From Lentisphaerota bacterium (GTDB lineage Bacteria; Verrucomicrobiota; Lentisphaeria; Victivallales; Victivallaceae), in the NCBI GenBank assembly GCA_015061775.1, contig SUVY01000005.1, positions 1 to 64,000 of the forward strand: a DNA stretch of 64,000 bases, in the 5' to 3' direction. The notes beneath the pieces are model-generated. The model was not told the DNA's origin. It made no database searches and was given only the letters and a program-made list of their open reading frames with translations. Positions 1 through 19,091 of this stretch are shown here, one piece after another (within the stretch, counting starts at the first letter, position 1; every line of letters begins with the position of its first letter). A program made the translations under genes and the position numbers.

Positions 1-103
1 AGAAAAGAAGTTTTCCCTCTCTCCCCGCGCCCCTCTCACCCTTTCAAGAAAAGCGAAAAAACTTTTTTATTTACTTTTACCTACCTTTGTCGGGAACAGA
101 GCC
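1..103. repeat. Repeat family A, partial copy at window edge
   Basis: The stretch ends in a CTTTTACCTACCTTTGTCGG...GAACAGAGCC block that is the reverse complement of the left end of the full copy at 35839-36037. It also holds the TTTCAAGAAAAGCG block seen in the copies at 18428, 33846 and 34433. It lies directly upstream of the alpha-galactosidase gene, so the leader of that gene probably contains the element. The left part is cut off by the window. Confidence 0.75.
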
Positions 104-137
104 TTCTGAAAATCAATGCATTAAATCAGGTGATCAA

Positions 138-2183
138 ATGAAAGAGACTATCAAGCTTCCGTTCTGCACGGAGTTCATGTATGACAAAGATACTGCCTCC
201 CTCACGCTGACCTCCCTGCTGGGAATGTCCTGCGCGTTTGGAGGGTACGACCGAGACTACTCCGACTCCGGAGCCGCCGTCATCTGCGCAGACTCGATGC
301 GGCTTGAGGGCAAAAAACTCAAATACCGCGTTTCTGAAGTAAAAAACGACTCCTTTTGTTTTGACGTCACCGATGAAAACAGCCGGATCAAACTTGAGTG
401 CCGCTGGATATTCGATACTGCACACAAAGTCATTTCCTGCAATTATACTTTGGTAAATACGCGTGACAAAACATTGACGGTGCGCCGTGCCCTTCCCCGC
501 TGGGTGTTTTCCCCGGGGAGATACCGTCTGCATTATCAGGAGAGCCGCTGGCTCGCCGAAAGTCTTCCGCGCTGCACCGAACTCAACGGAGCAGATATCA
601 ACCTGCACGCAAGAGCAGCCCGCTCAAGCTGCGGAAACACTCCGTTCTGCATCCTTGAGGACATGGAAAACTCCGCAGCAGCCGCATTTCACGTCGTACC
701 GCGCGGAAACTGGACGATACAGATACACAGCCGCATCCTCAGCTGCGAAGCGGCGATGCCGGTCATTGAAGCGGGATTGTCCGATTCCGATTTGTTTTTC
801 CCGCTCGGAGCGGGAGAACGGCTTGAGCTTCCGGAGGTCATCATTACAGAAGTCCCCCAGTGTGACCCGGGACTTGCCGGCGCGCTGATACAGAAGTATT
901 TCATCAACAACAGGCTTCCGGAAAATCTGAATACTCCGCCGGTAGTTTACAACTCCTGGCTCTACCGCTTCACAGGCTTCACAGCTCCGCAGCTAAGAAT
1001 GCAGCTCTCCGCCGCCAAAAAGATCGGCTGCGAAGTATTTATAGTCGATGCCGGATGGTTCGGAGGTGATGACTGGTATGAGAGCGTCGGCGACTGGCAG
1101 GAAAAACCGCAAGAGCCCTTCTTCGGAAACATGGCGTCCTTCGCCGATGAAGTGCGCGCAAGCGGTCTTGATTTCGGCTTCTGGATGGAGCCGGAACGCT
1201 GGGCGGAAAAAGCATCGATACGCAAAGAACACCCTGAGTGGTTTCCCGACCACTCTTTCCGCATCGACCTCGACCTGCCGGAGGCGGCAGAGCATTTTAT
1301 CGGCTCCATCCGCAAAAACATCAAAAAATTCAACGCGAAGTACATCAAGCTTGACTTCAACTCAGACATGGGATACGATGAGAGCGGCAGAGAGCTTCAC
1401 AGCTACTGCACAAAACTTACAGAGCTTCTGAAACAGCTCAGAAAAGAATTTCCGGAGCTTGTCATCGAAAACTGCGGTTCCGGCTCGCTCCGCAACGATC
1501 TTGCGACTTCCATGCTCTACGACGTCGCCTTTGTAAGCGACCATGCCCATTTGTTTGAGAATTTGCGGATACGGCAGGGACTCTTTGCCCGCACCATTCC
1601 GGGACGCACCCTCAACTGGGCTGTGACCCGCCCTGCCCCGGAACGCAGGACAAAGGTATATGATCATGAGCTCGTTCTCGGATGCACCTCTGCGTCATGG
1701 GACGAAGGAGCATTGTTCGACGTTGACTTTATCATGAGTTCCGCCCTGCTCGGAGTTCCGGGTTTTTCCGGAGACCTTGCCGGACTTGCTCCGGAAATAC
1801 TCGACCGTTACGCGGAATATATCGCCTTTTACAAAGAAAACCGGGAGTTCTTCGTCAACTCTCACGTCTATCAGCTCAATTTCAATTATATTCCGGAAGA
1901 TGACTGTGGAAATATCCTCGCGTTCCAGATGCAGGACAGCGGCTCTTCCGACTCACTCGTATTCGCCTACTCGAGCGGCTTCTCGCGCCGCGACAGACGC
2001 AGATTCAAACTGCACGCTCTTATTCCGGATAAAACCTACCGGGTGACCCGGCTGTTCGCCAAAGAAGAGGAGACTTCCACCGCGAGCGGAGCCGACCTCA
2101 TGCAGTACGGAGCAGATTGTTCATTCATTCCAAGCAATTTTGTCCGTCACTCAGGAGCAATATACAAGATAACAGAGTTATGA
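138..2183 (+). CDS. Alpha-galactosidase, GH36 family
   Basis: A 681-residue enzyme expected to release terminal alpha-galactose from raffinose-type oligosaccharides or galactomannan. The N-terminal half is a beta-rich domain and the centre is a TIM barrel. The nucleophile motif YIKLDFNSD puts the catalytic Asp near residue 406, and the acid/base is the Asp of VSDH near 468; NCGSGSLRND lies between them, as in GH36/clan D. Length matches the family (about 650-740). No signal peptide is visible, so it probably acts in the cytoplasm. The start at 138 is chosen over an upstream TTG (87) because AGGTGA sits four bases before it. The next gene begins 22 bp downstream. Family is secure; substrate is inferred. 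Confidence 0.9.
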   Translation: MKETIKLPFCTEFMYDKDTASLTLTSLLGMSCAFGGYDRDYSDSGAAVICADSMRLEGKKLKYRVSEVKNDSFCFDVTDENSRIKLECRWIFDTAHKVISCNYTLVNTRDKTLTVRRALPRWVFSPGRYRLHYQESRWLAESLPRCTELNGADINLHARAARSSCGNTPFCILEDMENSAAAAFHVVPRGNWTIQIHSRILSCEAAMPVIEAGLSDSDLFFPLGAGERLELPEVIITEVPQCDPGLAGALIQKYFINNRLPENLNTPPVVYNSWLYRFTGFTAPQLRMQLSAAKKIGCEVFIVDAGWFGGDDWYESVGDWQEKPQEPFFGNMASFADEVRASGLDFGFWMEPERWAEKASIRKEHPEWFPDHSFRIDLDLPEAAEHFIGSIRKNIKKFNAKYIKLDFNSDMGYDESGRELHSYCTKLTELLKQLRKEFPELVIENCGSGSLRNDLATSMLYDVAFVSDHAHLFENLRIRQGLFARTIPGRTLNWAVTRPAPERRTKVYDHELVLGCTSASWDEGALFDVDFIMSSALLGVPGFSGDLAGLAPEILDRYAEYIAFYKENREFFVNSHVYQLNFNYIPEDDCGNILAFQMQDSGSSDSLVFAYSSGFSRRDRRRFKLHALIPDKTYRVTRLFAKEEETSTASGADLMQYGADCSFIPSNFVRHSGAIYKITEL

Positions 2184-2205
2184 TCATATAATGTAGAGGA
2201 AAAAA

Positions 2206-5200
2206 ATGAATCTATTTATCACAAGCGGAGGCATACAGCATGATTTCGCCGAGAATGCGTCCGGAGTATATTATTACGAAGGAGACACTCTTGTTTCCCA
2301 TGCGATGACTATAAGCGGCATCACCAACAGCGGAACCATCATCGTCGAATCAGGCGGACTTGTTCAGGATATCGTTCCGGACCGTCCCGCAACCTCCTCC
2401 ACTCTCATCGAAGTCAATAGCGGCGGCAAAGCAGAAGATCTGGAATTATGTCGAAAAATGACGATCAACAACGGAGGAACTGCGGATAATATCAATGCAA
2501 AAGGCATGCTTTCCACCATGGGGTCATGGACTCCGGAGCTGACTGTCAACGCCGGAGGAAGTCTGACGAACCTTGAAGCGTATGCTGCCAACATAACCGT
2601 CAAACAGGGGGCTTCTGTCGGTGGAGCTTTGTTAAATGCATTTTCCGTAATGAATTTGTACGGCGACGGTGTAAACATCACAGTTAACGGTTATTACGGC
2701 CCCTCCCCAAGTATGAATAGCTATGTTAACATTTGGCGCGGAACTCTCAATCTGTATGGAAAAGCCTCCAACACCACCATTGCAAGATATGGTTCAGTCA
2801 ACATTCACTCAGGAGCCGTCGCTTCAGGCATAACCACCCAGGGAGAGCTGCATATAAACAGCGGAGCTTCGGCAACCGACATAACCATTGCAGGAGGTAA
2901 GACTTGCTGCGCCGGCAACGCAAAAAACATCATCATTTCTGGAGGAATTGCAGAAATCAAAGATGGCGCAGTTGTCGAAAACGTTCAAGTCCACATCGGA
3001 AACGCTCTCTATATCTCTTCAGGAGCATCCGTAACCGACATTAAAGAAAACGGCGGGGTCGTTCTGGTTGAATCAGGCGCGGTCGTCAGTTTTGCACAAT
3101 ATACCGCCGAAAATCTGACACTCACCGGCAGAGCAACCATCCACTCTGGAACAGTTTTCAAAAACGCCACAGCAAACAATGCGTCGGTACACATCTATTC
3201 GGGCGGCATCGCTGAAAGCATCCTCACAAATAAGGGAACTCTTTATGTTGAAAGCGGAGGAACCGCCTCCATCGCATTCAATCCGTGGGAAAAAGCAGCG
3301 ATAACCAGCGATGCAGGTGCTGTCATAACCTATCTTGCCCCGACATCTCAAATGTATCTCGGCAACTTCAAAGGCGGTCTCATCGGAACTGCCAATTCAT
3401 ACACAGAAGTCACCAGAAGCAACTATATCCATACGTATAACGACTGTCACGCCTCCGGCTTCAAGGTCAACGGCGGTACATACATCATGTCGCAGGGAGC
3501 TTCCGCCGAAGAGACCAGCATCAACGATTCAGGAAGAGTATCCGTCTGTTACGGTGCTCAAGCCCGAAACACCATCGTCAACGCAGGCGGAAGCATGATC
3601 GTATCCAATGGCGGAAAAGCTGACACCACGACCGTTTACAGCAGAGGAAACATCTCTGTACTCGCCGGAGCATCAGCCTCAAACATCATCGTCCTCAATG
3701 GCGGCGGCATCGAACTTGCTATTGAAAAAGGTACTTTTGCTCAGGGAGAATCCGCAGGTTCTGCATTTGATATGCGCGACGGTTACCTCAGCGGCTACCG
3801 CGTAAACGCTGCAACGACTGTTGGAAACGGCGGAGTTCTTTATGACACAACTCTCTGTAACGGAAATTGGGACCAACACAACACAGGCTTGATGATCAGC
3901 AGCGGAGGATTGGCTTCCAAAACTGCCGGTTCAGGTGTGGTCAATGTCTTTTCCGGCGGCTCGGCTATTGATACGGTACTCTCCGGAGGCGGAGTCAATG
4001 TTTTCGATGGAGGAGTTGCCAAAACCATCTCCATCTCAAACAGTGCAAGAACAACCGTATATGGCGGTGCTTCCGCAAGCGGAATAACCGGCAGTAACGG
4101 AAGACTTTTTATATACAATGGCGCATTTGCAAGCGATATATCCTTCAACGGCGGTGATATAAATATATTCAGCGGCGCATTTGCCGAAGATATCAATATC
4201 ACAAGCGCGCATCTGAGGTTTTCCAGCGGAGGAACAGCATCCGACACTACCATCAACGCAGGCGGCCATCTCTTTGCCTCAAGCGGAGCTTTTGCAGATG
4301 ACACCACCATCAACTGCTGGGGCAACGCCTCCGTCTTTGCCGGAGGAGTCATGCAGGATACTGCCATCAAAACCGGCGGCAAACTCACCCTCGTAAGCGG
4401 AGGTCTTCACAAGGGAGAGCTGAATATCGAATCAGGCGGCTCCGCACTCGCATACGCCGGAACCACTATCGATTTCACCGTTGCAGGCAGAACCGTTCAG
4501 GACGGATATCTTATAAATGACCTCAGCGCGATAAAATACAATCCGACCTACACTATCACTGTATCTTCCGACCTTGAACAGGGTATATACAAGCTCGCTC
4601 AATACGCCGGTTCCCTCAGAGGCACAATCACCATCAAAAATGAAAACGGCAGTATCGGAAAAATCTCCGTAAACGGCGAATCATTTGAATACAACGGCGT
4701 CGAATACACTCTCAATAATATAAACAGCAATCTCACGCTCACCGTTTACAAAGGAGAGGATATCACTCCGTGCCGCACAGATATCTACGGTACAGGCGTA
4801 AGTCAGATACTCGCGTGGGATAAAAACAAAGGTACTGTCGGAGCCATCTACAACGACGGCGTCAACCAGGTTCACTGGAGAGGTATCTGGGATTGGGGCG
4901 ACACAGAAACCGAACTCTGGAGAGTCGCTGGAGCCGGATTTTTTGATGGCAGCGATGTACTCCACGACGGCGTCCTGCTCTACAACGGCAAAGGTGACCG
5001 TTTCGCCTCTTGGACTAACCTCAGCATCGGCAGTTACGGCTACACCGACCTCTGGAAAGTTGCCGGCTCCTTCAACACCAAGACTCTCGCTGATCTTGAC
5101 GGCAATCAATACGATGACATCCTCATCTACGATGGAAACGGCAGCATCGGTGTCGTCCTTGACGGAACCCATTACCGCGATATCTGGCACGTCGAAGAGG

Positions 5201-5700
5201 GAGGCAGCTCCATCTGGCAGCTCGAAGGCGCAGGCAGTTTCGGGGAAGGAATGGATAAGCTTGTCATGCTCAATAAATCCAATAATCACGTCTATCTCTG
5301 GACCAACAACGACACCTCTTTTGAGACGTGGAACTGGTCTGCCAAAGATGCTGGAAAGCTCGCCTCCGGATGGGAAATCGCCGCCATCGGCGACTTTGAG
5401 GGCGACGGCACAGACGACATCATGGTTCTCGACCGCAGCACCAACAACGTCTGGGTATGGGATGACGGAAACAGCCAGACCAAACGCTGGCGCGGCACCC
5501 TCGGAGAAGGCTTCGAGATCGAAGCCGTCGGAGACTATAACGGCGACGGAAAAGAAGATCTGCTCCTGCGCGAACACAACTCCGGCTGGGGCGGTCTCGG
5601 CTACTGGGGCGCAGGTTACGCAGGAAACTGGGTCGATTTCAACGCCCGTATCGAAACCGACACCCGCATCTCAGGCAGCGTTTTTGAAATCATAGCGTAA
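2206..5700 (+). CDS. Giant AIDA-type repeat protein with C-terminal FG-GAP-like repeats
   Basis: A 1164-residue protein in two halves. Residues 1 to about 770 are a run of roughly 19-21-residue strand-loop-strand units built on SGG/SGA, INxGG and VxSGG, as in AIDA/autotransporter passenger repeats. Residues from about 855 to the end contain FG-GAP/VCBS-like units with Asp-rich calcium-loop motifs (DLDGNQYDDI, GDFEGDGTDDI, GDYNGDGKEDL), rich in Trp. It starts MNLFITSGG with no signal peptide, and there is no C-terminal beta-barrel domain, so it is not a classical autotransporter. The last residues are hydrophobic (VFEIIA), which would suit a C-terminal secretion signal, but that is a guess. 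Likely a surface or secreted adhesin/carbohydrate-binding protein. It follows the alpha-galactosidase by 22 bp with an AGAGGA ribosome site. Confidence 0.75.
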   Translation: MNLFITSGGIQHDFAENASGVYYYEGDTLVSHAMTISGITNSGTIIVESGGLVQDIVPDRPATSSTLIEVNSGGKAEDLELCRKMTINNGGTADNINAKGMLSTMGSWTPELTVNAGGSLTNLEAYAANITVKQGASVGGALLNAFSVMNLYGDGVNITVNGYYGPSPSMNSYVNIWRGTLNLYGKASNTTIARYGSVNIHSGAVASGITTQGELHINSGASATDITIAGGKTCCAGNAKNIIISGGIAEIKDGAVVENVQVHIGNALYISSGASVTDIKENGGVVLVESGAVVSFAQYTAENLTLTGRATIHSGTVFKNATANNASVHIYSGGIAESILTNKGTLYVESGGTASIAFNPWEKAAITSDAGAVITYLAPTSQMYLGNFKGGLIGTANSYTEVTRSNYIHTYNDCHASGFKVNGGTYIMSQGASAEETSINDSGRVSVCYGAQARNTIVNAGGSMIVSNGGKADTTTVYSRGNISVLAGASASNIIVLNGGGIELAIEKGTFAQGESAGSAFDMRDGYLSGYRVNAATTVGNGGVLYDTTLCNGNWDQHNTGLMISSGGLASKTAGSGVVNVFSGGSAIDTVLSGGGVNVFDGGVAKTISISNSARTTVYGGASASGITGSNGRLFIYNGAFASDISFNGGDINIFSGAFAEDINITSAHLRFSSGGTASDTTINAGGHLFASSGAFADDTTINCWGNASVFAGGVMQDTAIKTGGKLTLVSGGLHKGELNIESGGSALAYAGTTIDFTVAGRTVQDGYLINDLSAIKYNPTYTITVSSDLEQGIYKLAQYAGSLRGTITIKNENGSIGKISVNGESFEYNGVEYTLNNINSNLTLTVYKGEDITPCRTDIYGTGVSQILAWDKNKGTVGAIYNDGVNQVHWRGIWDWGDTETELWRVAGAGFFDGSDVLHDGVLLYNGKGDRFASWTNLSIGSYGYTDLWKVAGSFNTKTLADLDGNQYDDILIYDGNGSIGVVLDGTHYRDIWHVEEGGSSIWQLEGAGSFGEGMDKLVMLNKSNNHVYLWTNNDTSFETWNWSAKDAGKLASGWEIAAIGDFEGDGTDDIMVLDRSTNNVWVWDDGNSQTKRWRGTLGEGFEIEAVGDYNGDGKEDLLLREHNSGWGGLGYWGAGYAGNWVDFNARIETDTRISGSVFEIIA

Positions 5701-5725: not shown

Positions 5726-6634
5726 ATGAAAGAATTTTGTTACGATCTGTCAAGTCAGGAAATCAAAAAATACAACCGCAGTTTTCCGCAATACACTTCT
5801 CAGGAGGGGCTTGCCAATGCACTGCACCGCCTCGGTTTGAGAAAGGGAAACAAGGTAATCGTCCACTCATCGCTCGGTTCTCTTGGAACTTTTGAGGGTG
5901 GCGCAGAAGGCGTCTGCCGCGTCCTGATGGAATATATATCAAACGAGGGAACTCTGATGATGCCGGGACTGGTAAAATACCCGTCCAACGGAGAGGATTT
6001 TACATATATTCCGGAAACTACTCCGGTGGGTGTTGGACTTATTCCCGACACCTTCCGCAAGTTTGACGGAGTCCTCCGCTCGCTCGACCCCACCCACTCT
6101 TTTTCGGTCTGGGGCAAAGACAAAATCAAATACATCAAAGATCACCACAAACTGCCGACCATGCACCGCAACAACCCCCTCGGACTGCTCGAACAGGATG
6201 GAGGATACTGTCTGCTCATCGGATGTCCGACCAGGACGACCTTTATGCACGTGGTCGAAACAGCCTGCGGCGCCTCCTGTCTCGGTTCCCGAACCGAGGA
6301 GTACCCCGCAGTTATTTCGGGGCAGAAAGTCAAACTCCGCGGCTGGGGCTGGCGCAACGGAGAGTGCCGCGCTCTGCGGCATCAGGAAATTTTCGACTAT
6401 ATGCGCGACAACAACTCTTTGAGTGAATGTATGCTCGGAAGATGCCATTTGATGCTCTTTAAACTCTCAGCATACCGTGAAAGCTACTCCCGGCTTCTTA
6501 CTGCCAAAGAAAACGGCTGCGCCGGATGCCCCGTAACTGTGCGGAAAGTAGCTCAGAGTGTCGAAAGCGACTGGGATTTCATAAACGGCTGTCTGAAAGA
6601 GTCCGACGCCTTCACCGGAGACTTTTTCAGCTGA
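5726..6634 (+). CDS. AAC(3)-family N-acetyltransferase
   Basis: A 302-residue member of the antibiotic_NAT fold, whose known members acetylate the 3-amino group of aminoglycosides or other amino-sugar compounds with acetyl-CoA. The signatures are VIVHSSLGSLG near residue 35, EGTLMMPG near 72, SLDPTHSFSVWG near 117 and a CPTRTTFMHVVE segment carrying the expected catalytic His. Length is slightly above the usual 260-290. It begins 25 bp after the giant repeat protein and its stop overlaps the end of the convergent HD gene by 8 bp. Chromosomal homologues in environmental and gut bacteria often have no resistance role; a sugar- or peptide-modifying function is equally possible. Confidence 0.75.
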   Translation: MKEFCYDLSSQEIKKYNRSFPQYTSQEGLANALHRLGLRKGNKVIVHSSLGSLGTFEGGAEGVCRVLMEYISNEGTLMMPGLVKYPSNGEDFTYIPETTPVGVGLIPDTFRKFDGVLRSLDPTHSFSVWGKDKIKYIKDHHKLPTMHRNNPLGLLEQDGGYCLLIGCPTRTTFMHVVETACGASCLGSRTEEYPAVISGQKVKLRGWGWRNGECRALRHQEIFDYMRDNNSLSECMLGRCHLMLFKLSAYRESYSRLLTAKENGCAGCPVTVRKVAQSVESDWDFINGCLKESDAFTGDFFS

Positions 6635-9526: not shown

Positions 9527-11350
9527 ATGAAAAAGATCCTCTTTCACATCCACCGCAAAGGAATCGTCAAAAGCGTCGAGCTCTGGCAGAAACGCGGAGG
9601 TGAACGCACCATTGTCATTTTGATGGCTTTTTTCATCGGAGCAGTAACGGCTTGCGCAACAGCGGTACTGCATGTACTTGTTTCCAAACTCGACCAGCTC
9701 GGTCTCTATATCGAATCCCTGCAATTTGAACGCAACAACGCGTGGTACTGGATACTGCTTGCAGCACTTATTCCGCTCGCAGGTATCACGATATCATTCA
9801 TCATCCAGAAAACTCTCGGAGGCAAATTTTACGCAAAAAGCCTCAGCCCGCTCATCCTCGCACTCTACCGCAGAAGAAACAGCATTCCGCTGAAAGAGTG
9901 CTTCACCCATCTGCTTTCAAGCGGCTTTGCCGTCGGATTCGGAGGCTCTGCCGGTCTCGAAGCCCCCAGCGTCCTCACCGGAGCCGCCATCGGAGCAAAC
10001 TCCTCAAGTCTGCTCGGGATAGACCGCAAACAGCGCAATCTGCTTATCGGATGCGGCGCGGCAGGAGCGATATCCGGAATCTTCTCAAGCCCGATCGGAG
10101 GAGTGCTTTTCGCTGTCGAAGTGCTGCTTCCGGAATTCAGCGTGGCAGCACTCGTTCCCATGCTGATATCAAGCGCGACCGCCATGGTCGTATCACGCCT
10201 GATAACTTCAGGACACAGCCCGCTTATGTTCGCCTCCCAGCAGGTGTGGGCGGACAATGCGATACCGTTTTATTTCATGCTCGCAATATTCTCCTCCCTC
10301 ATCGGAGTTTATGTCATACGCACCGCTGTCCACTTCGGCAGACTGCTGAAAAACCGCATTCCGGATGCACGGGTACGCCTGCTTATCTCAGGAATCCTGC
10401 TCTGCATATTTCTGTTCATCTTCCCGGCTCTCCGGGGGCAGGGATACCACGTGATCGAAATGCTTTTCAGAAGCAACACTGCTGAGCTTTGCAAAACCTC
10501 AGCCTCTTTGCAGTTCATTCCTGCTCCGCTGCTCCTCGGACTCATCCTCACCGCCGGAATGCTGCTCAAAGTCATCACCTCAGTATTCACCGTGGAAGGC
10601 GGAGGCGACGGAGGAATATTCGCTCCCAGTATGGTCATCGGAGCCTTTGCAGGATTCACTTTCGCAAGACTTATGAACCTCACAGGATGGGTGCAGCTCT
10701 CCGAAGCAAATTTCGTCGTCGCAGGAATGTGCGGAGTATTCACCTCAGTAATGAAAGCTCCGCTGACAGGAATATTCCTGATCGCCGAGGTGACCGGAGG
10801 CTACATGCTTCTTGTTCCCCTCATGATCGTATCTGCGACCAGCTGGTTCATATCCCGCATCCTCGAACCGTACTCGATCTACCGCAAACCGCTTGCTGAG
10901 AGCCACATGATGGTCGATGACCGCGACCAGGCAATGCTCAAGCGTATTCCGGTAAGGCTGGCGGTGAACACTGTTTTCCAGCCGCTCGCTCCGTCGGATA
11001 CCGTATCAAAAGTCAACGCCCTCATCCGCGACACCGGAAAACGCAGTACCATATACCCCGTACTCGACGACGACGGAAAATTCTGCGGAGTAGTCCGGCT
11101 CGAAAAGATTTTGACCGCCATGCTCGACGAAACACTCTCTTCCACACTGGTGGTATATGACCTCATGGAAACTCCGCGCGGAGTCCTTTCAAGTGATGAC
11201 GACCTCGCCTGGGCGGTCGAAAACATGGAGCGGCACGACACCCGCGACCTGCCGGTCGTCAACCGCAACGGGCGTTTCATAGGCTTTGTCTCTTACAACA
11301 CTGTTTTTCATAAATACCGCACTCTCGTAAAAGAAAGTGAAAGTTTCTGA
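9527..11350 (+). CDS. ClC-family chloride channel/antiporter with CBS pair
   Basis: A 607-residue membrane protein. The N-terminal 440 residues form the ClC channel core with about ten or more hydrophobic segments. Selectivity motifs are GFGGSAGLEAPS, where Glu145 occupies the gating-glutamate position, and GGDGGIFAPS near 360. CGVFTSVMKAPLTGIFLIAE near 405 is also typical. The C-terminal 140 residues form two CBS motifs, which often bind adenine nucleotides and regulate the channel. It moves chloride or a similar anion across the inner membrane, in some members with proton exchange. The start is supported by CAAGGAAACAAG just upstream. It stands alone between the rpsA terminator and the promoter at 11371. 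Confidence 0.9.
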   Translation: MKKILFHIHRKGIVKSVELWQKRGGERTIVILMAFFIGAVTACATAVLHVLVSKLDQLGLYIESLQFERNNAWYWILLAALIPLAGITISFIIQKTLGGKFYAKSLSPLILALYRRRNSIPLKECFTHLLSSGFAVGFGGSAGLEAPSVLTGAAIGANSSSLLGIDRKQRNLLIGCGAAGAISGIFSSPIGGVLFAVEVLLPEFSVAALVPMLISSATAMVVSRLITSGHSPLMFASQQVWADNAIPFYFMLAIFSSLIGVYVIRTAVHFGRLLKNRIPDARVRLLISGILLCIFLFIFPALRGQGYHVIEMLFRSNTAELCKTSASLQFIPAPLLLGLILTAGMLLKVITSVFTVEGGGDGGIFAPSMVIGAFAGFTFARLMNLTGWVQLSEANFVVAGMCGVFTSVMKAPLTGIFLIAEVTGGYMLLVPLMIVSATSWFISRILEPYSIYRKPLAESHMMVDDRDQAMLKRIPVRLAVNTVFQPLAPSDTVSKVNALIRDTGKRSTIYPVLDDDGKFCGVVRLEKILTAMLDETLSSTLVVYDLMETPRGVLSSDDDLAWAVENMERHDTRDLPVVNRNGRFIGFVSYNTVFHKYRTLVKESESF

Positions 11351-11370
11351 GCAGAGAACAGCTTTTTTAC

Positions 11371-11398
11371 TTGAAATTGACGAAATCCGGAGTATATT
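11371..11398 (+). promoter_or_regulatory. Promoter of SDR-flavoprotein operon
   Basis: TTGAAA (11371-11376), 16 bp, TATATT (11393-11398). It lies about 55 bp upstream of the SDR start and matches the promoter shape seen before rpmE, nadC and rpsA. Confidence 0.6.
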
Positions 11399-11451
11399 TT
11401 CTGCAGTTAAATGTAACTTTGTGCCTTTTTAACAAATAAGGAAATATAAAC

Positions 11452-12207
11452 ATGTCAAAAACTGCCTTGATCACGGGTGCCGGACGCGGAATCGGCGCCG
11501 GAATCGCCACCAAACTCGCCTCTGAAGGATGGAATGTCGCAATCTGCGATCTGAAACCCATGGAAGACGGCAAAGCACAGTGCGCTGAACTCGAAAAAAA
11601 CTACGGAATCAAAGCTGATTATTTCCGTTGCGATATCTCCAAGACCGAAGACCGCCAGAAACTCGTCGATGATGTCATCGCAACTTTCGGCAGCCTTGAG
11701 GCCTTGATCAACAATGCCGGCGTCGCTCCCAAAGTGCGCGCCGATCTGCTTGAAATGTCCGAAGAGAGCTATGATTTCGTCACCGGAATCAACCTCCGCG
11801 GAAGTTTCTTCCTCACCCAGCTGGTCTGCCGCCACTTCGCCGAGCGCAAATGCGGTACTGTCGTCAACATCGGCAGCTGCTCCGCTACCGTGGTCAGCAC
11901 CAACCGCGGAGAGTACTGCATTTCCAAAGCCGGCGTCGCCATGTGCACCAAACTCTTTGCCGCCAGAATGGCTGAGTTCGGAGTCAGCGTCTATGAGATC
12001 CGTCCGGGCGTCATCATGACCGAAATGACCAGCGTGGTAAAAGACAAATATGACAAACTCATTGCTGAGGGTCTCACTCTCCAGCCGCGCTGGGGATATC
12101 CTGAGGACATCGCCAAGACCGTCGCCATGATGCTCCGCGGCGATATCGGCTACTCGACCGGTCAGGTGATCGACGTCGATGGCGGAATGAACATCCAGAG
12201 ACTTTAA
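11452..12207 (+). CDS. Short-chain dehydrogenase/reductase (SDR), FabG-like
   Basis: A 251-residue classical SDR. The Rossmann nucleotide site is TGAGRGIGAGIA at residues 8-19, NNAG lies near 86, and the catalytic pair is Tyr155 and Lys159 (YCISK). It ends with the usual VIDVDGGMNI. It oxidises or reduces an alcohol/ketone with NAD(P)H. It looks like FabG, but the context (first gene of an operon with two flavoenzymes and a ThuA protein) points to a catabolic sugar or polyol dehydrogenase rather than fatty-acid synthesis. AAGGAAATATAAAC precedes the ATG, and the next gene starts 16 bp after the stop. Confidence 0.88.
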   Translation: MSKTALITGAGRGIGAGIATKLASEGWNVAICDLKPMEDGKAQCAELEKNYGIKADYFRCDISKTEDRQKLVDDVIATFGSLEALINNAGVAPKVRADLLEMSEESYDFVTGINLRGSFFLTQLVCRHFAERKCGTVVNIGSCSATVVSTNRGEYCISKAGVAMCTKLFAARMAEFGVSVYEIRPGVIMTEMTSVVKDKYDKLIAEGLTLQPRWGYPEDIAKTVAMMLRGDIGYSTGQVIDVDGGMNIQRL

Positions 12208-12222
12208 AAAGATTCTTGCAAT

Positions 12223-14079
12223 ATGAAAAAAGTTAATACTCTTGTTATCGGAACCGGTGCAGCCGGACTTGCAGCAGCCCTGCGTCTCCACGCTGAAGGA
12301 GTCACCGATCTGCTGGTCGTTTCAGAGGGTCTCAACCGCGGAACTTCCATCAATACCGGAAGCGACAAACAGACCTACTACAAACTCGGAATCTACGGCT
12401 CTGAGCCCGACGCTCCCGAGCTGATGGCAAACTCCTACTACGAGAACGGAGCCGCCCACGGAGACGTCGCGCTGGTCGAATCAGCAATGTCTCTGCGCTG
12501 CTTCATGAACCTCGTCAATCTCGGAGTCCCCTTCCCCAGCGACCATCTCGGTCAGTTCATCGGATACAAAACCGACCACGACCCCAAACGCCGCGCCACC
12601 AGCTGCGGTCCCTACACCAGCAAAGAGATGTGTCTCGCACTTATCAAAGCTGTAAAGGCCGCCGGAATCAACGTTCTTGAAAAACGCACCGTCGCAGAAC
12701 TCATCACGGTCAAAGACCGCGCCGCCGGAGCTATCGTTTTCGACAACACCACCGAGCGTTTCGAGACCATCCTCGCAGAAAATACTGTTTTTGCGGTGGG
12801 CGGTCCCGGAGGTCTCTACTCCCAGAGCGTTTACCCCGTCGGTCATACCGGAGCCATCGGTCTCGCACTCAAACGCGGCGCCCAGGCTCAGGGACTTCCG
12901 GAGTCACAGTTCGGACTTGCTTCGATCAAATTCCGCTGGAATGTATCCGGAACCTACATGCAGGTGCTCCCCCGCTTCATATCCACAGACCAGGACGGAA
13001 ATGATGAGAGAGAATTCCTCCTCGACCACTTCGGCAGCGACAACGGTCTGCTCAACACCATGGTGTTCCTCAAGGGATATCAGTGGCCGTTCGATGTCCG
13101 CAAGGCTCCGGAAGGCTCTTCCATCATCGACCTGCTCGTCCACCGCGAAACTGCGGAAAAGGGACGCAGAGTCTGGCTCGATTTCCGCAGCAATCCGTCT
13201 GGCCTCAACTTCGATGAGCTCTCAGAAGAGGCTCACACCTACCTTGAGCGTTCCGGAGCTCTCTTCGGAACTCCGCTCGAGCGTCTGGAAAAGATGAACC
13301 CGGGAGCTATCGAACTCTACCGCGACCACAATATCGACATCGCCGAAGAGCCGCTCGAGATCGCAGTTTGCGCCCAGCACAACAACGGCGGTCTCTCAGG
13401 AACCATCTGGTATGAGTCACCCAATATCAAAAATCTCTTCCCCATCGGCGAAGTCAACGGCTCTCACGGCGTGACCCGTCCGGGAGGAACTGCGCTCAAC
13501 GCCGGTCAGGTCGGAGCTTTCCGCTGTGCAGAATACATCTCCAAAGTCTGCCAGATCGAGACGCTCGACACCAATGCCGCGGAGAAAGAGGCCTCCAAAC
13601 TCATGGACGCCCTCACCAAGAAACTCAACGGAAAACGCGACTGGCTCGCCGACCGCAAAGAGCTGCAGAACCGCATGACTCTCAATGCCGGTCACCTGCG
13701 CTGCCCCGCGACGCTCGACAAAGCTTTGAAAGAGGCAAGAGCTCTCGTGCTCAAGATGGAAGAAGAGGGTTATCCCTTCTCCGCCGGAGAACACGCGCTC
13801 ATCAACTTCCAGCTCGCTTTCGCCCATTGGGGATATCTCTCGGCGATCAAATTCCAGGCTGACGCCGGAGTCGGAAGCCGCGGTTCGGGTGCGATCATCG
13901 ATGAAAACGGCAAGATAATGCCGGAAAATCCCGAATTCCGCAAAAAGATCCTCGAGACCCGTTTCGAGGACGGCGACTTCCAGCACCGCTGGGTCGATTG
14001 CCGCCCGATCCCGCATGAGGACGGCTGGTTCGAGACCATCTGGGCTGAATACCGCAACAAAGAGGTTTACAACAAGTAA
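12223..14079 (+). CDS. FAD-dependent oxidoreductase, fumarate-reductase/SDH flavoprotein-like
   Basis: A 618-residue flavoprotein with an N-terminal FAD site (VIGTGAAGLAAALRLHAEG, residues 6-24) and a C-terminal FAD-contact segment TRPGGTALNAGQVGAFRCAEYI near residue 425. This is the arrangement of the fumarate reductase/succinate dehydrogenase/aspartate oxidase flavoprotein group. No signal peptide and no heme or Fe-S motif, so it should be cytoplasmic and take electrons from, or pass them to, a partner. The next gene, an FMN enzyme, is a natural candidate. Substrate unknown; fumarate reductase or L-aspartate oxidase itself is unlikely because no FrdB or NadA-type partner is present. Confidence 0.8.
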   Translation: MKKVNTLVIGTGAAGLAAALRLHAEGVTDLLVVSEGLNRGTSINTGSDKQTYYKLGIYGSEPDAPELMANSYYENGAAHGDVALVESAMSLRCFMNLVNLGVPFPSDHLGQFIGYKTDHDPKRRATSCGPYTSKEMCLALIKAVKAAGINVLEKRTVAELITVKDRAAGAIVFDNTTERFETILAENTVFAVGGPGGLYSQSVYPVGHTGAIGLALKRGAQAQGLPESQFGLASIKFRWNVSGTYMQVLPRFISTDQDGNDEREFLLDHFGSDNGLLNTMVFLKGYQWPFDVRKAPEGSSIIDLLVHRETAEKGRRVWLDFRSNPSGLNFDELSEEAHTYLERSGALFGTPLERLEKMNPGAIELYRDHNIDIAEEPLEIAVCAQHNNGGLSGTIWYESPNIKNLFPIGEVNGSHGVTRPGGTALNAGQVGAFRCAEYISKVCQIETLDTNAAEKEASKLMDALTKKLNGKRDWLADRKELQNRMTLNAGHLRCPATLDKALKEARALVLKMEEEGYPFSAGEHALINFQLAFAHWGYLSAIKFQADAGVGSRGSGAIIDENGKIMPENPEFRKKILETRFEDGDFQHRWVDCRPIPHEDGWFETIWAEYRNKEVYNK

Positions 14080-14087
14080 ATCAACTC

Positions 14088-14111
14088 CACGCCGTCTGTC
14101 ATGACGGCGTG
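14088..14111 (+). other. Intercistronic hairpin
   Basis: CACGCCGTC (14088-14096) and GACGGCGTG (14103-14111) form a perfect 9 bp stem with a six-base loop. No T-run follows, so it is more likely an mRNA-stabilising or attenuating structure inside the operon than a full terminator. Confidence 0.6.
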
Positions 14112-14137
14112 TTCATTGAATGACATAAGGTAAAGAA

Positions 14138-15598
14138 ATGAACTATCCACGTATTCCTTCGTTCAAAACAGCTGCCGACTTCAGAGACCATCTCAAAGAG
14201 ATCGGTGTCGATTTGGAAGTCGATGACAAAATCCTGAGCGCGCCGGAGTCCCCCCTCGCCCAGAGCATATCCTATCACGGTCACAAAATCGGCAACCGCT
14301 GGTGCGTCCTGCCCATGGAGGGCTGGGACTGCCTGCCCAACGGAGCTCCCAGCGAGTACACAAGACGCCGCTGGATGAACTTCGCAACCAGCGGAGCAAA
14401 ACTGCTCTTCGGATGCGAAGCCTGCGCCGTTATGAAGACCGGAAAAAGCAATACCCGTCAGCTCATGCTCACCGAGGAGACCTTTGATGCCATCAAACAG
14501 CTCCGCGAAGACATGGTCAAAGCTCATGCCGAAAAATTCGGAACCGCCGACGACCTTTACATCGGTCTTCAGCTCACCCACTCCGGACGTTACAGCCATC
14601 CCAACGATGATGCAAAACTTGAGTCGGTGACGGCTTATGAGCATCCGCTGCTGGATGAGAGATTCCATTGCAATGCCTCCAATGTCGTGACTGACGAAGA
14701 GATCCCCGAGATCATCGCCCACTACGGAAAAGCGGCGAAACTCGCTCAGAAGGCAGGCTTTGACTTCGTGGATATCAAAGTCGCTCACGGTTATCTCGGA
14801 CATGAGTTCCTCAGCGCATTCACCCGTCCGGGAAAATACGGCGGCAGCTTCGAGAACCGCACGCGTTTCTTCAGAGAAATCGTCGAAACAGTCAAAAAAG
14901 AGGCTCCGGGACTTGAGCTCGGAATGCGCTTCTCCATGTTCGACTGCCTTCCCTTCGAGCCCGGCCCGGACAGAGTCGGAATTCCGATGGAAAGAGGCGA
15001 TGTCAAAGTCGGAAATTACGCCTATGCGTTCGGCGGAGACGGCACCGGTCTCGGTTATGATCTTACCGAACCCATCAAGTTCCTCGAACTTGCTTCAAGT
15101 CTCGGAGTCGAACTCATCTGTACCACTGTGTGCAGCCCCTATTACAACCCCCACTTCCAGAGACCGGCTTACTATCCTGTCTCAGACGGATATCTGCCTC
15201 CGGAAGAGCCGATCATCGGTGCGGCGCGTCAGATCAATGCGCTCGCCAAGGTCAAGGAGCACTTCAAGGACTCCTCGATGCTCTTTATCGGTGCCGGCTA
15301 CACCTGTCTCCAGGAGTATCTCGTCAACATCGGTCAGGCGGCTGTCCGCAAAAACATCGTCGATTTCGTCGGATACGGCAGACTTGTTCTCTCCTATCCT
15401 GAGATCGTCGCCGATACCCTCGGAGGAAATCCGCTCAACACCCGCCGCATCTGCCGTACTTTCGGAGACTGCACCACAGCTCCGAGAAACGGACTTATTT
15501 CCGGCTGCTATCCGCTCGATGACCACTACAAGTGTCTCCCTGAGTGCGACAAGCTCAAATGCTATAAACAGCAGATCAAAGAGAAGTTTGCAAAATGA
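14138..15598 (+). CDS. NADH:flavin oxidoreductase, old yellow enzyme family
   Basis: A 486-residue protein with an FMN-binding TIM barrel of the OYE family: LPMEGWD near residue 64, LQLTHSGRYS near 147, KVAHGYLGHEFLSAFTRP near 212 and GGSFENRTRF near 231. After the barrel it has a Cys-rich tail (CRTFGDC, then GCYPLD, then CLPECDKLKC), reminiscent of the [4Fe-4S] region of 2,4-dienoyl-CoA reductase-type enzymes but with different spacing. It probably reduces an activated C=C or moves hydride from NAD(P)H to FMN. Its stop overlaps the ThuA start by 4 bp, so the two are translationally coupled. Substrate unknown. Confidence 0.85.
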   Translation: MNYPRIPSFKTAADFRDHLKEIGVDLEVDDKILSAPESPLAQSISYHGHKIGNRWCVLPMEGWDCLPNGAPSEYTRRRWMNFATSGAKLLFGCEACAVMKTGKSNTRQLMLTEETFDAIKQLREDMVKAHAEKFGTADDLYIGLQLTHSGRYSHPNDDAKLESVTAYEHPLLDERFHCNASNVVTDEEIPEIIAHYGKAAKLAQKAGFDFVDIKVAHGYLGHEFLSAFTRPGKYGGSFENRTRFFREIVETVKKEAPGLELGMRFSMFDCLPFEPGPDRVGIPMERGDVKVGNYAYAFGGDGTGLGYDLTEPIKFLELASSLGVELICTTVCSPYYNPHFQRPAYYPVSDGYLPPEEPIIGAARQINALAKVKEHFKDSSMLFIGAGYTCLQEYLVNIGQAAVRKNIVDFVGYGRLVLSYPEIVADTLGGNPLNTRRICRTFGDCTTAPRNGLISGCYPLDDHYKCLPECDKLKCYKQQIKEKFAK

Positions 15599-16251
15599 AG
15601 CTATTTGTTGCAGATGACCACTACAAAGCGTATCCAGGACGCAACCAGTTCGAGTGCATCCGGGATGCGTACAGCGACATGATTTTCAGGGAAAATGACT
15701 GGAGCGCATTCACCGAATTCGACCTTGTCAATGAATGCGACCTGCTCATTCTCAACATGATAGCAGATACCTGCGGTCTGCCGCTTCCCGACGAAAAACA
15801 GTCGGAAGCGGTCAAACGCTATCTCGAAAGCGGCAAAAATCTGCTTCTGCTCCATGGAGGAAGCTCCGCTTTCTGGCACTGCGACTGGTTCCGCCAAATC
15901 GTCGGAATACGCTGGGTCAGAAAAAACGATCCAGACGGGGTCGAAGCGAGTTTCCACCCCAAAGAGCCGTTCTGCGTCAAACCGGCAAAAACCCGTCATC
16001 CATTGGTGGGCAAACTTCAGGAAATGGACTTCCCTGAAGATGAGATTTATTGCTCACTTGAGCAGGTGACTCCTGTCACGACCCTGATGGAGACAACCAT
16101 CTCGCTCGGAACGTGCCCGCAATGCACTCTGAGCTTCACTCCCTGGGGAGGTAAAGTCATCAACTTCCTGCCCGGCCACCGTCCTGAAGTCACCCGCGAT
16201 CCGCGCCTTGTCAGCAACCTCAAGGTGCTCATCGACTATCTGGGCGAATAA
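15595..16251 (+). CDS. ThuA-like domain protein
   Basis: A 218-residue protein of the ThuA (trehalose utilisation) group, which has a class I glutamine-amidotransferase-like fold without a proven amidase role. Recognisable are the first strand MKLFVADDHY, a central LLLLHGGSSAFWHCDWF segment and PGHRPEVTRDPRL near the end. ThuA proteins accompany oxidation of disaccharides and keto-sugar metabolism in other bacteria. The ATGA overlap with the old-yellow-enzyme gene ties it to that operon. It may act on, isomerise or hydrolyse the oxidised product, but this is inference. The RecD2 gene follows 9 bp later and could be read through. Confidence 0.8.
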   Translation: MKLFVADDHYKAYPGRNQFECIRDAYSDMIFRENDWSAFTEFDLVNECDLLILNMIADTCGLPLPDEKQSEAVKRYLESGKNLLLLHGGSSAFWHCDWFRQIVGIRWVRKNDPDGVEASFHPKEPFCVKPAKTRHPLVGKLQEMDFPEDEIYCSLEQVTPVTTLMETTISLGTCPQCTLSFTPWGGKVINFLPGHRPEVTRDPRLVSNLKVLIDYLGE

Positions 16252-16260
16252 CTGTCCGCC

Positions 16261-18405
16261 GTGCAGAATACTCAGGAGCAGCAACTTACCCGCCTATGCG
16301 GTGAGATCATACACATAAGGTATGAAAACACCGTCACGGGCTTTGCTGTTGTTACGATCAACTCCGACAGCGGAGAACGCCACACCGTATGCGGAAAAAT
16401 CGCCGGTGTCCACCTCGGAAACATCCTCGATATGGAGGGGTATTTTGCCGATAACGAAAAATTCGGCAGAGAGTTCCGGGTCGAAACATTCCGTCCCGTG
16501 ATGCCGAAAACTGCTGACGGAATAAAAAAATACCTTGTTTCCGGAGTTTCCGGTATCGGTCCCAAGACCGCATCCATGATCGTCGATGCATTCGGAGCTG
16601 ACACGGTAAAGATACTCGACTCCCAGCCGTGGCGTCTCAAAGAGATAAGAGGCATCGGCAAACGCAAAGCCGACATGGTCATATCTTCCTGGCAAGAGGG
16701 CGCAGCAAGGCGCGACAGCATGATCTTTCTGCAGGGATTGGGAATCAGTCCTGCCTATTGCAGCAAACTATTCCGCAAATACAGCGACCGGGCTCCTCAA
16801 ATCGTCAAAAACAACCCTTTCCGTCTGGCTGAAGACATCGACGGCATCGGATTTCAGAAAGCCGACGCCATCGCCAAAGAGCTGGGATTTGCTCCTGACT
16901 CGACGGAACGGCTCTCAGCCGCTGCTGTTTATATTTTAAATACCTCCATTCAAAGCGGACATTGCGGACTTCCCGCAGAAGAGTTGCTCCGCCGTACCTG
17001 CGACCTTGCCAGGCAGTCTCCGGATTCCGTCAGGCGCGGCATCGAAAACGCTGTCATGCGCGGTTTTGCTGTGGAACGCGATGATTTTTATTACACTCCC
17101 AAGCTCGCCAAAGCTGAAGAGGAAATTCCGCTGCTCCTGAAAAAAATCGCCTCCTGCTCAAACCATCCGGGCAGAAAACTCACTCCGAAGTCAAGCTCTT
17201 TCAAGTGGGCAGAGTGTCAGAAAAAAGCGGTCGATGAGGTTTCAAAATCCGCCCTCTCGATCATAACCGGAGGTCCCGGTGTAGGTAAGACCACCGTTAT
17301 CCGCGAAATAGTCGCCCGCGCCAAAGCGGCAAAACTTTCCATCGCCCTCACCTCCCCTACCGGACGCGCGGCGAAACGTATGTCTCAAGCCACGGGATGC
17401 GAAGCAAAAACCATACACCGCCTGCTGATGTATGACCCGCAGATCAACGCTTTCGGATATGACGGAGATAATCCGCTCGAATGTGATATACTCATCGCCG
17501 ATGAGGTATCCATGCTCGATATGACGATCGCACACGCCCTCTTCAAGGCGATCTCTCCGGGAACGACGGTTGTTCTGGTCGGAGATGCAGACCAGCTGCC
17601 TCCGGTAGGTCCCGGCAGGTTCTTCTCGGACTTGATCGCATCAGGAAAAGTTCCCGTCACCCGCCTCGATCAGGTCTTCCGTCAGGCCTCTGGAAGCCGC
17701 ATCATCGAAGCCGCTCACCGCGTCAACGCCGGGTTCACTCCCCTGCGCAGCGAAAATCCGGACACCGACTTCTTCTGGGTCAGGCAGGACGATCCGGACA
17801 AAGCCCTCGATCTGATGCAGAAAATCGTCCTCGAGCGCATTCCGGAAAAGTTCGGCTTCGATCCCGTAAACGAAATACAGGTACTCACCCCCATGAACCG
17901 CGGAAACTGCGGAACTGTCGCCATAAATGAACTGCTCGCCTCCAAACTCAACCCCTGCGATGGCAAAGCCTCCCTCGAATACGGCGACCGCCGCATCAAT
18001 CCCGGTGATAAAGTCATGCAGATCCAGAATAACTACGACAAAGGTGTCTTCAACGGAGATTTCGGCGTTGTCATCGAAACCAACCGCGAAAACGGAAAAT
18101 TCAAAGTCCTCTACGATAACGAAAAAATCGTCGAATACTTCACCGATGAAATGGACCAGATCAGCAAAGCCTACGCTATCACCATACATAAATCACAGGG
18201 CAGCGAATTTCCGGCAGCCGTCGTACTTCTCCAAAATCAGCACTTTCTCATGCTCCAGAGAAATCTCCTTTATACCGCTATGACCAGAGCTAAAAAACTG
18301 CTCATCCTCATCGGCAGCGAAAAATGCGTTGAAATGGCAGTCCGTAACGCCCGCACCGAAGTCCGCTTCACCCGCCTTCCTCAGCTCCTTGATGCGGCGT
18401 TTTGA
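16261..18405 (+). CDS. recD2: RecD2-type ATP-dependent 5'-3' DNA helicase
   Basis: A 714-residue SF1B helicase. The N-terminal region has paired helix-hairpin-helix motifs (VSGIGPKTASMIV, IRGIGKRKADMV). Then come Walker A GGPGVGKTT near residue 340, Walker B LIADEVSMLD near 410, GDADQLPPVGPG and the C-terminal motif AITIHKSQGSEFP near 640. Length and architecture match RecD2/YrrC-like proteins, which act in replication and repair without RecBC; no recB or recC is nearby. The start is a GTG with no good ribosome site, 9 bp behind the ThuA gene, so coupling is likely. The repeat A hairpin starts 23 bp after the stop. Confidence 0.92.
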   Translation: MQNTQEQQLTRLCGEIIHIRYENTVTGFAVVTINSDSGERHTVCGKIAGVHLGNILDMEGYFADNEKFGREFRVETFRPVMPKTADGIKKYLVSGVSGIGPKTASMIVDAFGADTVKILDSQPWRLKEIRGIGKRKADMVISSWQEGAARRDSMIFLQGLGISPAYCSKLFRKYSDRAPQIVKNNPFRLAEDIDGIGFQKADAIAKELGFAPDSTERLSAAAVYILNTSIQSGHCGLPAEELLRRTCDLARQSPDSVRRGIENAVMRGFAVERDDFYYTPKLAKAEEEIPLLLKKIASCSNHPGRKLTPKSSSFKWAECQKKAVDEVSKSALSIITGGPGVGKTTVIREIVARAKAAKLSIALTSPTGRAAKRMSQATGCEAKTIHRLLMYDPQINAFGYDGDNPLECDILIADEVSMLDMTIAHALFKAISPGTTVVLVGDADQLPPVGPGRFFSDLIASGKVPVTRLDQVFRQASGSRIIEAAHRVNAGFTPLRSENPDTDFFWVRQDDPDKALDLMQKIVLERIPEKFGFDPVNEIQVLTPMNRGNCGTVAINELLASKLNPCDGKASLEYGDRRINPGDKVMQIQNNYDKGVFNGDFGVVIETNRENGKFKVLYDNEKIVEYFTDEMDQISKAYAITIHKSQGSEFPAAVVLLQNQHFLMLQRNLLYTAMTRAKKLLILIGSEKCVEMAVRNARTEVRFTRLPQLLDAAF

Positions 18406-18427
18406 GCGTGAGAGGGTGTGGGTTTTC

Positions 18428-18530
18428 TTGGGAAAGGGCGAAACTTCTTTTCGCGGGAAAAGAAGTTTCGCCCTCTCCCAAACCCTCTCCCACTTCAAGA
18501 AAAGCGGGAGTTCTTGCGGTGTGGTTGTTT
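18428..18530. repeat. Repeat family A, copy after recD2
   Basis: AGGGCGAAACTTCTTTTC (18435-18452) pairs perfectly with 18457-18474 around a GCGG loop, and TTGGGA/TCCCAA extend the stem. It is followed by CTTCAAGAAAAGCGG, shared with the copies at 33846 and 34433. No T-run follows the stem, so it is not a standard terminator. Confidence 0.8.
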
Positions 18531-18946: not shown

Positions 18947-18952
18947 TATTTT

Positions 18953-19053: not shown

Positions 19054-19091
19054 GATAATTGCCAACCTTCAATTAACAATAGGGGGAAAAG

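What the first reader, a model, noticed from the sequence alone, without database searches (positions are those of the whole stretch)
2206..5700. AIDA-repeat plus FG-GAP giant protein without signal peptide or beta barrel
Passenger-type strand-loop-strand repeats are normally exported by a C-terminal autotransporter barrel. Here the N-terminus starts directly with the repeats (MNLFITSGG) and the C-terminus is a calcium-loop FG-GAP-like domain ending in hydrophobic residues. Export must use another route, such as type I secretion, or the protein is cytoplasmic, which would be surprising. Its place next to an alpha-galactosidase hints at carbohydrate binding.
Basis: partly seen in the sequence, partly recalled or inferred. 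Interest (0 to 1): 0.55.

Follow-up and report, generated by a model that had tools for sequence, protein, structure and literature searches.

The report
Heptosylated repeat proteins exported without barrel
A gut bacterium of the Lentisphaeria carries a family of large surface-type proteins built like E. coli "autotransporter" adhesins but lacking the autotransporter's export parts; gene neighbourhoods in related species indicate that a type I secretion pump exports them and that the enzyme family that decorates the E. coli adhesins with heptose decorates these too.

Summary
ORF 2206-5700 (1164 aa) has strand-loop-strand (SLS/AIDA) repeats, a C-terminal FG-GAP beta-propeller, no signal peptide and no barrel; an in-frame TAG excludes an earlier start. 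At least 14 proteins of this Lentisphaeria genome share its 309-aa C-terminal domain behind variable fronts. The genome has no PF03797 barrel, one HlyB/HlyD-type secretion pair (T1SS) and one TibC/Aah-family O-heptosyltransferase (HepT; 53% identical to TibC, catalytic Asp and iron-finger Cys kept). Here these lie on other contigs; in relatives they cluster: HepT-SLS-ABC-HlyD (2 genomes), ABC-HlyD-HepT (2), SLS gene beside HepT in 16 of 40 neighbourhoods. Some of those SLS proteins end in RTX repeats. In 197 genomes of the class, 81 have HepT; 72 of these have HlyD, 3 any barrel match. Best explanation: a heptosylated SLS protein exported by T1SS, the Ca2+-type propeller serving as C-terminal export/folding module and possibly lectin anchor. 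New variant of a known kind. Secretion and glycosylation were not measured.

The parts
2194..2200 (+). in-frame TAG (2194-2196) and ribosome-binding-like AGAGGA (2195-2200) that fix the start codon
   Evidence: sequence read
2206..5700 (+). SLS/FG-GAP protein, 1164 aa, no signal peptide
2206..4473 (+). strand-loop-strand (AIDA/TIGR04415) passenger, residues 1-756; predicted target of O-heptosylation
   Evidence: PF16168, TIGR04415; TibA/Ag43 structures by sequence; 18-19 residue periodicity
4474..4770 (+). about 100-aa linker/cap shared with several paralogues (matches begin at residues 748-757)
   Evidence: alignment ranges
4771..5697 (+). C-terminal domain of 309 aa shared by at least 14 proteins of the genome; FG-GAP beta-propeller; proposed C-terminal export/folding module
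5092..5118 (+). FG-GAP acidic loop DLDGNQYDD (Ca2+-type)
   Evidence: read; D and G positions conserved in alignment A1
5392..5418 (+). FG-GAP acidic loop DFEGDGTDD (Ca2+-type)
   Evidence: invariant positions in A1; integrin alpha-V FG-GAP match over residues 207-268 of the domain
5533..5559 (+). FG-GAP acidic loop DYNGDGKED (Ca2+-type)
   Evidence: A1
5683..5697 (+). extreme C-terminus FEIIA; hydrophobic end shared by the whole family
   Evidence: A1, A2

Best explanation
The gene encodes a large SLS (AIDA-type beta-solenoid) surface or extracellular protein of a gut Lentisphaeria bacterium. Proposed route: (1) in the cytoplasm its SLS loops are O-heptosylated by the genome's single TibC/Aah-family heptosyltransferase (HepT); (2) the protein, which has no Sec signal, is recognised from its C-terminal end by a HlyB/HlyD-type T1SS with a peptidase-dead C39-like domain and leaves through a TolC-type channel in one step; (3) outside, Ca2+ folds the FG-GAP propeller (the role RTX repeats play in classical substrates), and the propeller may also act as a lectin that tethers the protein to a glycan. 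Shown here: the domain architecture, the paralogue family with a common C-terminus, the absence of barrels, the presence of ABC, HlyD, TolC-type and HepT genes, and the clustering of HepT, SLS and T1SS genes in relatives. Inferred: that this protein is exported, by this pump, that it is heptosylated, the Ca2+ trigger, and the lectin role.
For: No signal peptide and no alternative start. At least 14 proteins of the genome with different front parts (SLS, Chlamydia-PMP repeats, right-handed beta-helix, Ig-like) share the same 309-aa C-terminus; 13 of the 13 others end F-x-(I/V)-(I/L)-(A/S), and this one ends FEIIA. No PF03797 in this genome. One HlyD over the TIGR01843 cut-off (280.7 bits) next to an ABC transporter that fits HlyB-type TIGR01846 best (642 bits; cut-off 725.6); that ABC protein has no Cys between residues 13 and 220, so its C39-like domain (residues 143-240) has no catalytic Cys before residue 221, as in CLD transporters for large C-terminal-signal cargo (PMC8277102, passages). 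One HepT, 583.7 bits against a cut-off of 200, 199 of 376 aligned residues identical to TibC, with D110, K230, R286, W305 and Cys 339/342/358/370 kept (residue roles from PMC4358343, passages). Gene clusters in relatives: HepT-SLS-ABC-HlyD in L197 and L198, SLS-ABC-HlyD in L199, ABC-HlyD-propeller protein in L200; ABC-HlyD-HepT in L176 and L185; an SLS gene adjacent to HepT on the same strand in 16 of 40 neighbourhoods. The SLS proteins of L197 and L198 carry AIDA repeats and RTX repeats PF00353 in one chain. Class survey: HepT in 81 of 197 genomes, of which 72 have HlyD and 3 have any barrel match. HldE-type kinase for the ADP-heptose donor, 327 bits against a cut-off of 345, in a Kdo gene cluster.
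Against: In this genome the gene lies next to neither HepT nor the T1SS, so the link runs through paralogues and other species. The protein has no RTX repeats: Pfam up to E = 1 lists only AIDA and FG-GAP models. The C-terminal FEIIA is the last strand of the propeller in the model, so its conservation could be structural. 43 of the 115 HlyD-positive genomes have no HepT, and 9 of the 81 HepT-positive genomes lack a HlyD hit, so the two are not strictly coupled. 22 of 40 HepT neighbourhoods show neither an SLS nor a T1SS gene. BAHT enzymes seem to act on folded passengers (PMC8151025, passages), whereas T1SS is generally held to export unfolded cargo; the same tension exists for Sec-exported autotransporters. 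No export or glycosylation data exist for these organisms here.
Confidence: 0.66

Rival explanations
1. The protein is exported by the T1SS, but the recognition signal is not the C-terminal propeller. The propeller is only a shared lectin/anchor module spread by domain shuffling, and the signal lies elsewhere (for example the common N-terminal start 'ISSGV(I/V)S-G' or internal sequence).
For: The closest fold is the sugar-binding UmbA4 propeller, Z 25.7 against 15.1 for the next entry. Several paralogues share an N-terminal ISSGV-type start. T1SS- or HepT-linked SLS proteins in relatives use at least three different C-terminal domains: propeller, RTX, PPC.
Against: Not all paralogues share the N-terminal start (L056, L058, L061, L064, L066), while 14 of 14 share the C-terminus. 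Across domain types the C-terminal end is similar: 9 of 14 non-propeller SLS proteins end in hydrophobic-Ala(-Ser) against 2 of 264 other ORFs (pattern chosen after looking).
Confidence: 0.18
2. T1SS export is right, but this protein is not heptosylated; HepT serves only the SLS paralogue at its own locus.
For: HepT lies two genes upstream of one particular SLS paralogue (L056) and on a different contig from the window gene.
Against: [quoted passage not shown] The window protein scores 86.3 bits on the repeat model named for O-heptosylation targets, whereas the HepT-linked paralogue itself gave no NCBIfam hit at E <= 1e-5.
Confidence: 0.2
3. Export is by another route: another ABC exporter of the genome (such as C25:51485-53227 with a weak HlyD-like neighbour) or an unknown pathway.
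For: 28 stretches of this genome match TIGR03375, including a second ABC with HlyD-like fragments of 44.5 bits next to it.
Against: Only the C23 pair passes the T1SS HlyD cut-off, and relatives of the C23 pair (ABC 51-63% identical) are the ones found in SLS/HepT clusters. The neighbourhoods of the C25 and C24 exporters were fetched but not analysed.
Confidence: 0.08
4. The protein is cytoplasmic, or a decayed autotransporter that has lost its signal peptide and barrel.
For: No signal peptide, no barrel.
Against: At least 14 long open frames share the architecture without any barrel, some of 2-3 kaa; nine copies in the sister genome G171; none of 12 SLS-type proteins beside HepT or T1SS in other genomes has a signal-like N-terminus. 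Decay would not give this.
Confidence: 0.03

Closest known systems
AIDA-I / TibA / Ag43 self-associating autotransporters (type Va secretion)
   Same: SLS beta-solenoid passenger; TibC/Aah-type heptosyltransferase in the genome with catalytic and iron-finger residues kept.
   Different: No Sec signal, no C-terminal barrel in the protein or anywhere in this genome; the C-terminus is an FG-GAP propeller; HepT clusters with ABC-HlyD in relatives.
RTX-type and giant-adhesin T1SS substrates (HlyA-like export by HlyB-HlyD-TolC)
   Same: No N-terminal signal; constant C-terminal module with Ca2+-type acidic loops; HlyB-like ABC with a C39-like domain that lacks the catalytic Cys, and a HlyD, in the genome; relatives' SLS proteins beside the T1SS carry real RTX repeats.
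   Different: No RTX repeats in this protein; FG-GAP propeller instead; the passenger is AIDA-type and linked to O-heptosylation.
Umbrella-toxin lectin UmbA4 beta-propeller (Streptomyces)
   Same: C-terminal propeller fold, best structural match (Z 25.7, rmsd 3.0, 296 aligned).
   Different: 16% identity; different bacteria, different N-terminal domains and export; glycan binding untested here.

Membership tests
Classical autotransporter (type Va, AIDA-I/TibA type) | SLS/AIDA beta-solenoid passenger | tested here: met
   PF16168 1.1e-12, TIGR04415 86.3 bits, TibA structure 3.3e-18
Classical autotransporter (type Va, AIDA-I/TibA type) | N-terminal Sec signal peptide | tested here: not met
   No hydrophobic segment, no alternative start
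Classical autotransporter (type Va, AIDA-I/TibA type) | C-terminal PF03797 beta-barrel | tested here: not met
   No barrel in the protein or in the genome (controls E. coli and Caulobacter ring)
T1SS substrate | No cleavable N-terminal signal; constant C-terminal region shared by cargoes with different fronts | tested here: met
   14 proteins share the C-terminus
T1SS substrate | Cognate ABC (with CLD), HlyD adaptor and TolC-type channel encoded in the genome | tested here: met
   C23 ABC-HlyD pair; PF02321 genes on C89 and C27; which channel is used is not known
T1SS substrate | Gene linked to the T1SS genes | tested here: inconclusive
   Not linked in this genome; SLS or propeller relatives linked in L197-L201
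T1SS substrate | Secretion that depends on the T1SS | not testable with these tools
   Needs experiment
RTX protein | RTX nonapeptide repeats (PF00353) | tested here: not met
   Not among Pfam hits up to E = 1 for the window protein; present in SLS-type proteins L182, L197, L198, L223
BAHT / TIGR04414 O-heptosyltransferase (genome partner, L056:15517-16872) | Score over the curated cut-off | tested here: met
   583.2-583.7 bits, cut-off 200
BAHT / TIGR04414 O-heptosyltransferase (genome partner, L056:15517-16872) | Catalytic base D110, sugar-binding T226/K230/R286/W305, four iron-finger Cys of TibC | tested here: met
   All kept except T226, which is Ser (conservative); stereo-selecting P300 is Ser, and AAH has Ser-294 there
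BAHT / TIGR04414 O-heptosyltransferase (genome partner, L056:15517-16872) | Heptose transfer to SLS Ser/Thr | not testable with these tools
   Needs mass spectrometry
FG-GAP beta-propeller lectin (UmbA4/PVL-like) | Propeller fold with acidic Ca2+-type loops | tested here: met
   Model pLDDT 83.9; UmbA4 Z 25.7
FG-GAP beta-propeller lectin (UmbA4/PVL-like) | Glycan binding | not testable with these tools
   Needs binding assay

The most novel reading that the evidence does not exclude
In Lentisphaeria the 'autotransporter heptosyltransferase' family is mostly not an autotransporter partner at all but the glycosylation arm of a type I secretion system: a HepT-SLS-ABC-HlyD module that makes and exports O-heptosylated beta-solenoid proteins in one step, with interchangeable Ca2+-folding C-terminal modules (RTX, FG-GAP propeller and perhaps PPC) and a common short hydrophobic-Ala end as the pump's address.
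Probability: 0.55. Interest if true: 0.72.

Novelty: new variant of a known kind. Interest (0 to 1): 0.6.

Why it matters
It uncouples the SLS beta-solenoid and its cytoplasmic O-heptosylation from type V secretion, where both were characterised, and ties them to type I secretion in a class of gut bacteria. It also poses a testable question: how a glycoprotein modified as a beta-solenoid is threaded, glycans attached, through a one-step ABC exporter. And it gives an address (a shared C-terminal module) for many unannotated large proteins of rumen and colon Lentisphaeria.

Tried and rejected
Signal peptide from another start: rejected (in-frame TAG at 2194-2196). Autotransporter barrel elsewhere in the genome as a two-partner arrangement: no PF03797. 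Functional link to the alpha-galactosidase: rejected as not conserved. Active C39 peptidase with double-glycine leader: no Cys at residues 13-220 of the ABC protein and no common leader at the N-termini.

Single-sequence AlphaFold2 of the passenger was poor (pLDDT 51.6) and is not used. Foldseek alone gave only weak, generic propeller matches. A chance estimate for HepT and HlyD lying within 10 kb of each other (5 of 72 genomes, expected about 0.7) is rough and not corrected for relatedness; by genus it is about three events. The Fisher tests of co-occurrence ignore relatedness too; the counts that went into them were read by me from the lists.

The resemblance of the FEIIA end to the acidic-plus-hydrophobic C-terminal ends of Erwinia proteases is recalled; the paper search for it gave no passage that I read on it, so it is not used as evidence.
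Full report
WHAT IS THERE. The ORF at 2206-5700 encodes 1164 aa. An in-frame TAG ten bases upstream of the ATG and an AGAGGA box fix the start. Residues 1-756 are strand-loop-strand (SLS) repeats: PF16168, TIGR04415 at 86.3 bits, sequence matches to the TibA and Ag43 passengers, and an 18-19 residue periodicity. Residues 757-855 are a linker shared with several paralogues. Residues 856-1164 are an FG-GAP domain that AlphaFold2 models as a beta-propeller with pLDDT 83.9. There is no N-terminal hydrophobic stretch and no barrel.

THE GENOME. The window is the first 64 kb of an 80-kb contig of a 2.70-Mb genome in 107 contigs, 98.4% complete. The C-terminal domain occurs in at least 14 proteins of this genome, the other 13 being 42-71% identical to the window copy. 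Their fronts differ: SLS repeats, Chlamydia-PMP repeats, right-handed beta-helix, Ig-like domains. Twelve of the 14 have a start inside the contig; L062 and L068 are cut at their 5' end. A further protein, L067, shares SLS repeats but is cut by the contig end before its C-terminus.

THE EXPORT PARTS. No PF03797 barrel. One HlyD passes the TIGR01843 cut-off, next to an ABC protein that fits the HlyB model TIGR01846 best, at 642 bits, below that model's cut-off of 725.6. The ABC protein has a C39-like domain (residues 143-240) and no Cys between residues 13 and 220, hence no peptidase Cys; a review links the peptidase-dead form to large cargo with C-terminal signals (PMC8277102, passages read). 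TolC-type genes lie on C89 and C27.

THE GLYCOSYLATION PART. The genome has one TIGR04414 heptosyltransferase, HepT (583.7 bits), two genes upstream of an SLS-type paralogue on C71, with a GT2/GT1 protein between them. Against TibC in the PDB, 199 of 376 aligned residues are identical. D110, K230, R286 and W305 and the four iron-finger cysteines are kept; T226 is Ser; P300 is Ser, where AAH has Ser-294 (roles from PMC4358343, passages read). An HldE-type heptose-7-phosphate kinase, slightly below its cut-off (327 against 345 bits), lies in a Kdo gene cluster, so a donor route is plausible but not completed on this evidence.

THE LINK. In this genome the parts are scattered. In relatives they are together. 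Of 20 HepT neighbourhoods first fetched, 8 have an SLS gene next to HepT and 2 have ABC-HlyD-HepT in a row. Of 20 more, from different genera where possible, 8 have an SLS gene next to HepT. That is 16 of 40 and 2 of 40; the other 22 show neither. All 16 are on HepT's strand. Some contigs end close to HepT, and the second set was read with a wider SLS query set than the first. Five further loci were chosen because HlyD lay near HepT or near a propeller match: L197 and L198 have HepT-SLS-ABC-HlyD, L199 SLS-ABC-HlyD, L200 ABC-HlyD followed by a propeller protein, L201 a propeller protein about 2 kb before ABC-HlyD. These five are not a random sample. The SLS proteins of L197 and L198 have AIDA repeats and RTX repeats in one chain, and RTX repeats also lie near the end of the SLS-type proteins of L182 and L223. 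That is the plainest sign that SLS proteins of this class are T1SS cargo.

CLASS SURVEY. In 197 genomes of the class, HepT is in 81, HlyD at E <= 1e-30 in 115, PF03797 at E <= 0.001 in 19, 15 over cut-off. From these lists 72 of 81 HepT genomes have HlyD (Fisher p = 5e-14) and 3 of 81 have any barrel match, one of them weak with a stop inside (relatedness not corrected). In a phylum sample of 387 genomes HepT is in 52, of which 51 are in this class. The strong full-length form of the C-terminal domain is narrow: this genome, G171 (9 copies) and G118 (1 copy above 400 bits); with the weaker FG-GAP relatives, 28 of 197 genomes have a match.

HOW IT LIKELY WORKS. Cytoplasmic O-heptosylation of the SLS loops by HepT; T1SS export directed from the C-terminal end; folding of the FG-GAP propeller outside, where Ca2+ is available, in the role that RTX repeats play elsewhere. 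The propeller's closest solved relative is the glycan-binding propeller of UmbA4 (Z 25.7 against 15.1 for the next entry; PMC13274773, passages read), so it may also tether the protein to a glycan. The sequence-level PDB match is to the FG-GAP part of integrin alpha-V. C-termini are alike across domain types: 9 of 14 non-propeller SLS proteins end in hydrophobic-Ala(-Ser) against 2 of 264 other long ORFs (three SLS ORFs cut by a contig end were left out); the pattern was picked after seeing the ends, and several of the 9 share one RTX-type domain.

WHAT IS NOT SHOWN. Export, the identity of the signal, heptosylation, Ca2+ binding and glycan binding are inferred. The apparent action of BAHTs on folded passengers (PMC8151025, passages read) sits uneasily with export of unfolded chains, though Sec-exported autotransporters face the same problem.

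NOVELTY. The parts are known; the combination was not found in print in the searches made: 'strand-loop-strand' with 'type I secretion' 0 papers; 'Lentisphaer' with 'heptosyltransferase' 0; 'Victivallis' with 'autotransporter' 1, an obesity-microbiome study by its listing; 'FG-GAP' with 'type I secretion' and 'C-terminal' 1, a Pseudomonas protease paper by its listing. These cover open-licence PubMed Central papers only; the 2014 Cell Host Microbe paper that named the BAHT family was not read (seen only as a reference).

Noticed in passing
window 5726-6634 +: Aminoglycoside 3-N-acetyltransferase-like gene (PF02522, 130 bits; below all NCBIfam AAC(3) cut-offs) 25 bases downstream of the SLS gene; may well not be a resistance gene.
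   Followed up: partly
window 87-2183 +: GH36/melibiase-type enzyme that also scores 106 bits on a beta-L-arabinopyranosidase model (cut-off 1100), so 'alpha-galactosidase' is not certain.
   Followed up: partly
N-termini of L067:2-4186, L174:10479-13775, L182:10524-16424, L197:7308-10442: A shared N-terminal stretch around 'VYLDFDG' in SLS-, T1SS- or HepT-linked proteins without a Pfam match there; an unassigned domain.
   Followed up: no
L066:2039-10468 and 10565-19636, - strand: Two tandem paralogues of 2,809 and 3,023 aa with the same C-terminal domain.
   Followed up: partly
C-termini of SLS proteins in L173-L240: Proteins with unrelated C-terminal domains end in a hydrophobic residue plus Ala (or Ala-Ser).
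   Followed up: partly
G267:C70:12398-14757: The only HepT outside the class in the phylum sample is a tandem pair in long open frames.
   Followed up: no
L173:3450-4049: An SLS protein next to HepT ends in a PPC domain and also matches T9SS sorting-domain models (TIGR04183 42 bits, PF18962 38 bits).
   Followed up: no
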